Assembly: GCA_022844015.1 (NCBI GenBank)
Contig: JALHMO010000004.1
Coordinates: 1 to 64,000, forward strand
Reading direction: 5' to 3'
From: Reyranella sp.
Lineage (GTDB): Bacteria > Pseudomonadota > Alphaproteobacteria > Reyranellales > Reyranellaceae
DNA length: 64,000 nucleotides
Both the position numbers and the translations under genes were made by a program. The notes below the pieces were generated by a model. It saw nothing but the letters and a program-made list of their open reading frames with translations, searched no databases and was not told where the DNA came from. This document shows, one piece after another, positions 56,388-60,090 of the stretch (within the stretch, counting starts at the first letter, position 1; every line of letters starts with the position of its first letter).

Positions 56388-57995
56388 TCAGCTGAAGCGC
56401 CAACCCTTGGTCCGGCGCGAGATCGCGACCATCCGGGTGATGAACGCGCCGGCGACCGTGACGACGACACCGAGCACGATCTCCTGCGGCTCCAGCCGGT
56501 CGCCCTCCCAGTCGAGAAACAGGGCGAAGGCGAGACCCCACACGAAGGCAATCTCGGCATAGAGCTCGCCGCGCAGGTTGGCCACCACGCGATCGTGGCG
56601 AAACAGGTCGCGCATCACGCCGCCGAATGCGCTGGTGAGCACCGCGGCGATCGGGCCCCACAGCCACAGCGGCTGGACCCCGGCATCGAGCACCACGACC
56701 ACGCCGGTGACGGTGAAGGCGGCGAGCCCGACCGCATCCGTCACCTCGATCGATCGGCTCGCCAAGGTCGTCGGCAAGACCAAGTGGCGGGCCTGCAGGA
56801 GTTGCGCGCCCCGGATGACCAGCATGCCCGCCAGCACCGTGCCGAACACGACCAGCAGAACGTCGGGATGCCGCACGATCCCGATCGGCTCGCGCTGCAG
56901 GAGGAGGTCGCGCACGATGCCGCCGCCGACCGCCGGCAAGACGGCGAGAAGCATGGCGGCGAACACCGTGTACTTTCCCTCGTGCGCGAGCATCACGCCC
57001 GACAGCGCGAAGGCCACCGTCCCGAGGAACGCCAACAGCGCGAACCAGCCGGTGTCGATCGTCTGGTTGGTCAACACGGGCATGACATAGACGCGCGCGA
57101 TGCGGTGGAACTCGCCGCTGCGCTTCATCTGGTCGATCGCCGCATCGACGCGGGCGACCTGCTCTTGTGTCTGGCTGACGCGGCTCAGCATGAAATGGAT
57201 GTCGGTCGAGACGCGAAGCGGATGCTCCTCGATCAGGGACGCCTCGTTGCGCCGCCACGCCGTGGTGGCCGCGGAAACGCGATCGGCGAGGAAGCCGTCG
57301 ATCACGCCGGCCATCAGGTTCTGGAGATTCCTCGAATCGGTCTCGACGACGACGATGCGGTCCCTGTTGGCAGCGTCGGCGACGAACGCATTGATGCGCC
57401 TGTCGGCGTAGACGTAGCCGCCGATCACGCCGAGCCGGAACTTCTGCTTGCCGAACGTCTCGAGCAATTCGTCGAGCGTCCCGGCGGCAAGCCGCGCGCT
57501 CGTGCCGCGTCGCACGATCAGGACGTTCGTTTCGGTTCGATAGGGTTTGGAGAAGTAGGCGTAGCGCTCGCGCTCCTCGGACTTCGTCGCGCCGGCCGCA
57601 ATGTCGGCGGTGCCTGCGGCGATTGCCGCGAGATGCGGCTCCCACTCGCGCAGCGGCAAATCCATCTCGACGCCCAGGATGCGCGCGATTGCGCGCTCGA
57701 TCTCGATATCGAAGCCGGTCAGGAGGGCGACGCCGCGGCTGTAATCCTGATACTGATAGGGATCCCACGGATACCACCCGCCGCGCAGAATCTCGGCCGC
57801 CGGGCCGGGCCTGGCCGGGGCAGTGGTCTGCGCCGCTGCGCTGGCCGCAAGCACGAGGATGCCGAGGCATCCGGCAATCCAGGCAGCGATGGGTGACAGG
57901 AACGATCGCGCACATCGCGCCGACCCCGCGCGGCGGGAGCCCTGCTCGCCCGGGCGAAGGGCGCGTTGGGCGCCGGCGGTCCGCAGGAAGCGCAA
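56388..57995 (-). CDS. fusion of a periplasmic solute-binding domain with a TRIC/UPF0126-type membrane domain
   Basis: A 535-residue protein with two unrelated parts. After a signal/anchor helix (about 36-56), residues about 66-300 are a family 3 solute-binding domain (G-F-D-I-E-I-E-R-A-I-A-R-I-L-G, then G-T-A-D-I-A-A-G-A-T and Y-F-S-K-P-Y). Residues about 325-530 form a seven-helix TRIC/UPF0126 module with both repeat signatures (P-A-V-G-G-G-I-V-R-D near 365; T-S-A-F-G-G-V-M-R-D near 455). The start is TTG 57993-57995 with a GGGAGGG Shine-Dalgarno 5 bases away; no better codon exists. It follows the quinone-oxidoreductase-like gene by 13 bases. A ligand-controlled cation or small-molecule channel is a fair inference. 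Confidence 0.8.
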   Translation of the reverse strand: MRFLRTAGAQRALRPGEQGSRRAGSARCARSFLSPIAAWIAGCLGILVLAASAAAQTTAPARPGPAAEILRGGWYPWDPYQYQDYSRGVALLTGFDIEIERAIARILGVEMDLPLREWEPHLAAIAAGTADIAAGATKSEERERYAYFSKPYRTETNVLIVRRGTSARLAAGTLDELLETFGKQKFRLGVIGGYVYADRRINAFVADAANRDRIVVVETDSRNLQNLMAGVIDGFLADRVSAATTAWRRNEASLIEEHPLRVSTDIHFMLSRVSQTQEQVARVDAAIDQMKRSGEFHRIARVYVMPVLTNQTIDTGWFALLAFLGTVAFALSGVMLAHEGKYTVFAAMLLAVLPAVGGGIVRDLLLQREPIGIVRHPDVLLVVFGTVLAGMLVIRGAQLLQARHLVLPTTLASRSIEVTDAVGLAAFTVTGVVVVLDAGVQPLWLWGPIAAVLTSAFGGVMRDLFRHDRVVANLRGELYAEIAFVWGLAFALFLDWEGDRLEPQEIVLGVVVTVAGAFITRMVAISRRTKGWRFS

Positions 57996-58992: not shown

Positions 58993-60090
58993 TCATGGCC
59001 GCCACGGCTCGGTGTAATTCTCCGCGCCGACCTTGCGCACGTCGGTCAGCCAGTCGCCGTCGTACGGCCAGGCATCGGGCGATTTGGGATCCGGCCCCTG
59101 CCAGAAGCGGGCGAGCGCGTCGCTGCCGACCTTCTCGAGCGACCACGCCTGGCGGCGGAAGGTCCAGCTGTCCGGGACCAGGCGATGGGCCTCGCGGAAG
59201 TGGCGCACCGCTGCGTCGTGATGGCCGTCCGTCTCGAGCTGCGAGGCGAGCTGGAAGTGCGCATGACCGCGCGCCTTGTCCGCGTCGCGCGGCCGCGACC
59301 GCTCGATCACCTGGTCGGGCGAAAGAGCGAAGCGGCTCGCCGCGCCGCGCGCAACCCAGTCGCGCAGCGCCGAATGATAGGCCTCCGTATCGCGCCGGAT
59401 CTTCGCTGCCTCGGCCATGATCTCGACGAAGCGCTGCGGCGCGTCGGCAGGCAACGCCAACCGCGGCCCGCTGGTCGGCTGCGGCGGTGCCGGCGCCGCC
59501 TCGGCAGGCCGCACGATCACGCCGTTCTCGTCGATCCACACGCTGCTCGGGATGTTGATCACCCCGAACAGCTCGGCCAGCACGTGATGCCTGTCGATCA
59601 GCGAAGGATGCGTCGGCCGGGCCGCCTCGATGAAGGCACGGCAGCCGGCGTCGCCCAACGTGTCGAGCCCGACCGTGACCAGCTCGAAGCCGCCGGGATG
59701 CAGCTCGTCGCGCAAGGACCGCCACACGGGCAAGTCTCGCGAGCAGCCTCAATACGGCGCCCAGGCATAAAGCAGGACCTTCCGGCCGCGCTGGCTCGAT
59801 AACCGGAACAGATTGCCGTCGAGGTCGGGCAGGGTCAGATCGGGCGCCTCCGCAGTCGCCAGCGCCCGCGAGCCGACAGCAGCCGGGCCGAGCGCCCATA
59901 GCCCGTGCTCTGCAGCCTCGACCAGGGGCATGCCCATGTCGCCGGCAACCTGCGCGACGTCGACCGTGTCGCCTGCCGGGCGCGACAGCGGGATGCAGAC
60001 GTGGCCCTGGCAGGCGCCCTCCGGCTTCAACGTCCAGCCGGTGCCGGCCTCGAACTCGCTTCTCGACACAGTGAGCGAACGCAGCAACAT
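58993..60090 (-). CDS. ResA/TlpA-like redoxin, probable selenoprotein with in-frame TGA
   Basis: One continuous frame from ATG 60088-60090 to 58993, interrupted only by TGA at 59749-59751 (codon 114). Before it: L-P-D-L-D-G-N-L-F-R, then K-V-L-L-Y-A-W-A-P-Y. After it, in the same frame: G-C-S-R-D-L-P-V-W and V-I-N-I-P-S-S-V-W-I with the thioredoxin cis-Pro. So it is W-A-P-Y-(TGA)-G-C, the position where ResA/TlpA-type homologues place the first redox cysteine. From memory, a selenoprotein family with W-A-x-x-U-G-C exists and this fits it. A SECIS-like hairpin lies downstream. Read through, it is 365 residues: redoxin domain about 80-210, helical C-terminal part 230-365. A plain nonsense mutation is the alternative, but less likely. 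Confidence 0.85.
59703..59744 (-). promoter_or_regulatory. candidate bacterial SECIS hairpin
   Basis: On the transcript strand after the TGA: GCUCG (+5 to +9) can pair with CGAGC (+42 to +46). An upper stem forms from GAC/GUC and GCC/GGC, with a small UU/G internal loop, closed by the loop CGUGU. The first loop G is 22 nt after the UGA, inside the about 16-37 nt range and with the GU-containing loop described for bacterial SECIS elements. Drawn by eye; no folding energy was computed. Confidence 0.6.

What the first reader, a model, noticed from the sequence alone, without database searches (positions are those of the whole stretch)
58993..60090. Probable selenoprotein: redoxin read through TGA at the redox-cysteine position
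Both halves of one ResA/TlpA-like redoxin lie in the same frame, separated by a single TGA. The residue context W-A-P-Y-(TGA)-G-C-S is where homologues carry a catalytic Cys. A standard gene caller would report two fragments and lose the active site. This matches, from memory, a W-A-x-x-U-G-C selenoprotein family.
Basis: partly seen in the sequence, partly recalled or inferred. Interest (0 to 1): 0.85.

Follow-up and report, generated by a model that had tools for sequence, protein, structure and literature searches.

The report
Selenoprotein redoxin of WAxxUGC family
This gene contains a stop-like TGA that the bacterium almost certainly reads as selenocysteine at the active site of a thioredoxin-fold redox protein; it is a clear but ordinary member of an already catalogued selenoprotein family that standard gene finders would cut in two.

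Summary
On the minus strand, 60090..58993 is one 365-residue frame broken only by a TGA at 59751..59749 (WAPY-TGA-GCSRDL). Read as Sec it matches NCBIfam NF041054 (WAxxUGC_long) at 507 bits (cut-off 300).

The genome has selC, selB, selA and selD. All 18 family members examined from 289 class genomes carry one TGA in the same column, and all 18 carrier genomes have SelB (41 of 289 do overall). Of 80 homologues from a species-wide scan, 74 have TGA and 6 have TGC (Cys). None of the 6 Cys genomes has SelB; 15 of 16 Sec genomes sampled do. Nucleotides +18 to +34 form a conserved hairpin with a CG(U/G)GU loop that fits the bacterial SECIS model, except that its energy is borderline in this sequence. 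Its loop codons are conserved far beyond what the protein needs.

The protein is a ResA/TlpA-fold domain with U-G-C in place of CxxC, plus an N-terminal domain with an invariant CxxxxC and a helical C-terminus. The kind was published in 2008 as "Prx-like (UGC-containing)". It is a new member of a known kind; its substrate is unknown.

The parts
58993..60090 (-). Selenoprotein gene, WAxxUGC_long / ResA-like redoxin, 365 residues with Sec at 114; ends in TGA at 58995..58993
   Evidence: translation; NF041054 507.4 bits vs cut-off 300; Pfam AhpC-TSA 49.9 bits, Redoxin 46.1 bits
59749..59751 (-). In-frame TGA read as selenocysteine (Sec114) in WAPY-U-GC
   Evidence: same column TGA in 18/18 class homologues and 74/80 species-wide, TGC in the other 6
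59718..59734 (-). Putative SECIS hairpin: nt +18 to +34 from the T of the TGA, five-pair stem UUGCC/GGCGG, loop CGUGU; the five inner pairs form in all 74 distinct Sec sequences
   Evidence: spacing and loop fit the bSECIS model of PMC13188914
60099..60105 (-). Shine-Dalgarno-like GGGGAGG upstream of the ATG at 60090
   Evidence: sequence
59995..60012 (-). N-terminal CQGHVC (C27-x4-C32), conserved as CxxxxC in 98 of 98 members, Sec and Cys forms alike
59509..59853 (-). ResA/TlpA-like thioredoxin-fold domain (about residues 80-194)
58996..59439 (-). Helical C-terminal region (about residues 218-365) with one weak TPR-like match
   Evidence: TPR_14 match below Pfam cut-off; helices in the AlphaFold model

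Best explanation
The gene encodes a single 365-residue selenoprotein of the WAxxUGC_long family. During translation, SelB with Sec-tRNA(Sec) reads UGA codon 114 as selenocysteine, directed by a SECIS hairpin whose loop begins 20 nt downstream, and the second TGA ends translation. The Sec replaces the N-terminal, nucleophilic Cys of a ResA/TlpA-type active site shortened from CxxC to U-G-C. Most likely the selenolate attacks a peroxide or disulfide and is resolved by Cys116 to a selenenylsulfide, which is then re-reduced, possibly by the invariant N-terminal C27/C32 pair or by cellular thioredoxin. Shown here: the frame, family membership, Sec machinery, Sec/Cys exchange and RNA-level constraint. 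Inferred: actual Sec insertion, the chemistry, the resolving and re-reducing partners, and a cytoplasmic location (no evident signal peptide by eye).
For: NF041054 507 bits. selC 72 bits, confirmed as tRNA-Sec with anticodon TCA; selB 447 and selA 563 bits beside it on contig C103; selD 292 bits. 18/18 class homologues with one TGA at the same column. All 18 carrier genomes are among the 41 of 289 with SelB above cut-off (hypergeometric 1e-17 ignoring kinship). 74 TGA and 6 TGC species-wide. 0/6 Cys genomes but 15/16 Sec genomes have SelB (Fisher 9e-5, ignoring kinship). Codons +7 and +8 are synonymously identical in 18/18 against about 0.35 expected. Six-pair stem 5.89 of 6 formed against 4.96 after synonymous resampling (maximum 5.19 in 200), loop kept 100% against 16%. 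Fold: ResA, E 9e-10; Sec aligned to the first Cys of CxxC.
Against: No direct evidence of selenium or of the full-length product. In this particular sequence the hairpin alone is weak (about -7 kcal/mol, near the -7.5 model limit) and the lowest-energy fold of the 48 nt is a different one. One Sec-form genome (L127) gave no SelB at the limit used, perhaps because it is an incomplete MAG. The shuffle test of covariation is only moderately significant, because the stem hardly varies.
Confidence: 0.96

Rival explanations
1. A nonsense mutation or sequencing error has split an ordinary Cys-type redoxin gene into a pseudogene.
For: A single TGA is one base from TGC/TGT/TGG; the window comes from a draft assembly (240 contigs, 83% complete).
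Against: The same TGA is at the same column in 92 Sec sequences across several phyla, with the frame open on both sides in nearly all of them; GC3 stays high in both halves (0.85, 0.89); the SECIS loop is constrained.
Confidence: 0.01
2. The TGA is read through as Trp or another standard residue by a suppressor tRNA or a variant code, or the two halves are separate proteins.
For: The second half has its own possible TTG start a few codons after the TGA.
Against: The replacement residue in homologues is Cys, never Trp; the trait tracks SelB; the genome has all four sel genes; the second half alone would lack the active-site Sec/Cys pair.
Confidence: 0.02
3. It is a selenoprotein, but its job is peroxidase-like (Prx/AhpC) rather than ResA/TlpA-like disulfide reduction.
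For: Pfam AhpC-TSA is the top domain hit and the 2008 survey filed the UGC type as Prx-like.
Against: Best solved-structure matches by fold and sequence are ResA, StoA and TlpA-type reductases; NCBIfam calls it ResA-like. The data do not decide the substrate, and this rival is compatible with the best explanation as far as Sec insertion goes.
Confidence: 0.45

Closest known systems
NCBIfam NF041054 WAxxUGC_long, 'ResA-like WAxxUGC motif-containing protein'
   Same: Whole-length match 1-363 to model 1-352 of 354, 507 bits against a cut-off of 300; Sec at the motif.
   Different: Nothing of substance; the window's copy is a typical WAPY-type member.
'Prx-like (UGC-containing)' selenoprotein of Zhang and Gladyshev 2008 (PMC2398784); 'UGC-containing TlpA disulfide reductase family protein' in PMC13188914
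   Same: UGC motif on an AhpC/TSA or TlpA domain (pfam00578/cd02966); Sec and Cys forms both known.
   Different: Those tables give motif and domain only; sequence identity with their members was not compared here.
ResA / StoA / TlpA thiol-disulfide oxidoreductases
   Same: Thioredoxin-like fold, TM-score about 0.77 over the target; similar active-site context (WATWC); Sec aligned to the first Cys of CxxC.
   Different: UGC instead of CxxC, no evident membrane anchor or signal peptide, extra N-terminal CxxxxC domain and helical C-terminus.

Membership tests
NF041054 WAxxUGC_long | Score above the curated cut-off (300 bits) over nearly the full model | tested here: met
   507.4 bits, positions 1-352 of 354
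NF041054 WAxxUGC_long | W-A-x-x-U-G-C motif with in-frame TGA | tested here: met
   WAPY-TGA-GC
Bacterial selenoprotein | selA, selB, selC and selD in the genome | tested here: met
   all above curated cut-offs
Bacterial selenoprotein | Sec/Cys exchange at the TGA column in homologues | tested here: met
   74 TGA, 6 TGC of 80; Cys forms in genomes without SelB
Bacterial selenoprotein | bSECIS: 3-9 nt loop with G in its first two positions, 4-16 bp upper stem, 16-37 nt from UGA | tested here: met
   loop CGUGU, 5-6 bp stem, 20 nt spacing; model in PMC13188914
Bacterial selenoprotein | bSECIS free energy at or below -7.5 kcal/mol | tested here: inconclusive
   About -7.1 for the 27-nt hairpin of this sequence; family mean for nt 13-40 -9.3
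Bacterial selenoprotein | Selenium in the product | not testable with these tools
   needs 75Se labelling or mass spectrometry
ResA/TlpA thiol-disulfide oxidoreductase | Thioredoxin-like fold of that type | tested here: met
   ResA 2f9s E 9.2e-10, TM 0.77; sequence profile matches
ResA/TlpA thiol-disulfide oxidoreductase | CxxC active site | tested here: not met
   U-G-C, one residue shorter; so ResA-like, not ResA

The most novel reading that the evidence does not exclude
The family is a distinct redox enzyme in which a shortened U-G-C active site works with a second, invariant N-terminal CxxxxC centre in the same chain as a built-in electron relay, an architecture not, to my knowledge, described experimentally.
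Probability: 0.3. Interest if true: 0.45.

Novelty: new member of a known kind. Interest (0 to 1): 0.25.

Why it matters
It is a correct selenoprotein call from raw sequence and shows that a default annotation would report two fragments and lose the catalytic residue. For the family, the Sec/Cys exchange that tracks SelB, and the SECIS loop constraint that relaxes in most Cys forms, give clean comparative support for Sec insertion. The biological role of the UGC redoxins remains open.

Tried and rejected
Conserved gene neighbourhood: flanking genes of 60 loci share no consistent partner and the window's own neighbours do not recur in the top clusters, so it gives no functional clue. Plasmid carriage: no match in the plasmid collection at E 1e-30. 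A second copy in the same genome: none; other hits are weak and lack TGA (the genome is about 83% complete). A phylum-wide sample with a strict limit found only the window's genome and one same-genus relative, because the family is patchy. The pseudogene and recoding-as-Trp readings were rejected on the Sec/Cys column and on the link with SelB.

Full report
Observation. The finding's coordinates are right and the gene is on the minus strand. Codons 1 to 365 from ATG 60090 run to a terminal TGA at 58995..58993, with one internal TGA, codon 114, at 59751..59749, in the context WAPY-TGA-GCSRDLPVW. A Shine-Dalgarno-like GGGGAGG precedes the ATG.

Family. Read with TGA as Sec, the protein matches NCBIfam NF041054, WAxxUGC_long, 'ResA-like WAxxUGC motif-containing protein', at 507 bits over the full model, cut-off 300; each half alone matches its own part of the same model. 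Pfam gives AhpC-TSA and Redoxin for residues 80-194 and only sub-threshold TPR matches in the C-terminal part.

Machinery. The window's genome has one strong tRNA-Sec with selB and selA beside it on the same contig and selD elsewhere, all above curated cut-offs.

Homologues. In 289 genomes of the class, 18 genomes hold clear members. All 18 loci read have a single TGA in the same column, followed by invariant G and C. The same 289 genomes searched for SelB gave 41 above cut-off, and all 18 carriers are among them (1e-17 by hypergeometric, ignoring kinship). A scan of one genome per species kept 80 homologues (Alpha-, Beta- and Gammaproteobacteria, Acidobacteriota, Actinomycetota, 'Deltaproteobacteria'): 74 with TGA and 6 with TGC at the column, nothing else. 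The six Cys forms come from Actinomycetota and Burkholderiales and form one side of a branch in the tree (98/80). None of their genomes has a SelB, whereas 15 of 16 sampled Sec genomes do (Fisher 9e-5, ignoring kinship). The exception, L127, may be an incomplete assembly.

SECIS. Nucleotides +18 to +34 from the TGA form a hairpin with a five-base CGUGU (or CGGGU) loop. The five inner pairs form in all 74 distinct sequences, with CG, UG and UA alternatives at the fifth pair. In the class sample, codons +7 (CCC or TCC) and +8 (GTG) are identical within each amino acid in every sequence, against about 0.35 expected from codon usage. Resampling synonymous codons keeps the loop in only 16% and forms 4.96 of six pairs, against 100% and 5.89 observed. 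Most Cys forms have lost the loop (CCGCTG, CCGCTC, TCCGGC); one, Patulibacter, keeps CCCGTG. The hairpin meets the published bacterial SECIS constraints on loop size, loop G, stem length and spacing. The energy constraint is borderline for the window sequence itself, and its lowest-energy fold over 48 nt is another structure.

Structure and mechanism. An AlphaFold model (mean pLDDT 80) has a thioredoxin-type core whose nearest solved structures are ResA and related thiol-disulfide oxidoreductases. A profile comparison aligns the Sec with the first Cys of CxxC, with a one-residue gap before the second Cys; the active site is therefore U-G-C. Two N-terminal cysteines in a CxxxxC arrangement are present in 98 of 98 members. 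I infer a selenolate attack resolved by Cys116, with re-reduction by the C27/C32 pair or by thioredoxin; none of these steps is shown. There is no evident signal peptide, unlike ResA and TlpA (by eye; no predictor was run). The neighbourhood is not conserved.

Known or new. The kind was reported in 2008 as 'Prx-like (UGC-containing)' with 46 Sec and 855 Cys sequences in ocean samples (PMC2398784), appears as 'UGC-containing TlpA disulfide reductase family protein' in a 2026 review (PMC13188914), and has its own NCBIfam model. This is a well-supported new member of a known kind, of modest interest. What stays open is its substrate and the role of the CxxxxC domain.

Evolution, in passing. Sequences fall into a WAPY type (this gene) and a WASW type. 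The window's gene and two Reyranella-like sequences sit inside a group otherwise made of betaproteobacterial sequences (100/99), while two genomes of the window's own genus carry the WASW type instead. This suggests horizontal transfer.

Noticed in passing
58993-60090, compared with L019, L027, L029, L049, L051: The window's WAPY-type copy groups with Burkholderiales/Betaproteobacteria copies (100/99 support), whereas two genomes of the same genus carry the diverged WASW type; likely horizontal transfer or replacement.
   Followed up: partly
L020, L021, L036 genomes (G091, G123, G227): These three genomes carry two TGA-containing family members each, and have a SelB that scores much lower (about 300 bits) than that of the other carriers.
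   Followed up: no
60090-59860, minus strand: N-terminal TGWxLKPEGxCxxxxCxPL domain with invariant CxxxxC in 98 of 98 members; no Pfam family hit it.
   Followed up: partly
56388-57995, minus strand: A 535-residue protein that fuses a solute-binding domain (SBP_bac_3) to a PF03458 (Gly_transporter) membrane domain.
   Followed up: no
L057, L128: Public MAG records titled Bordetella parapertussis and Klebsiella pneumoniae carry this gene but look like mislabelled environmental MAGs, judging from their isolate names and near neighbours in the tree.
   Followed up: no
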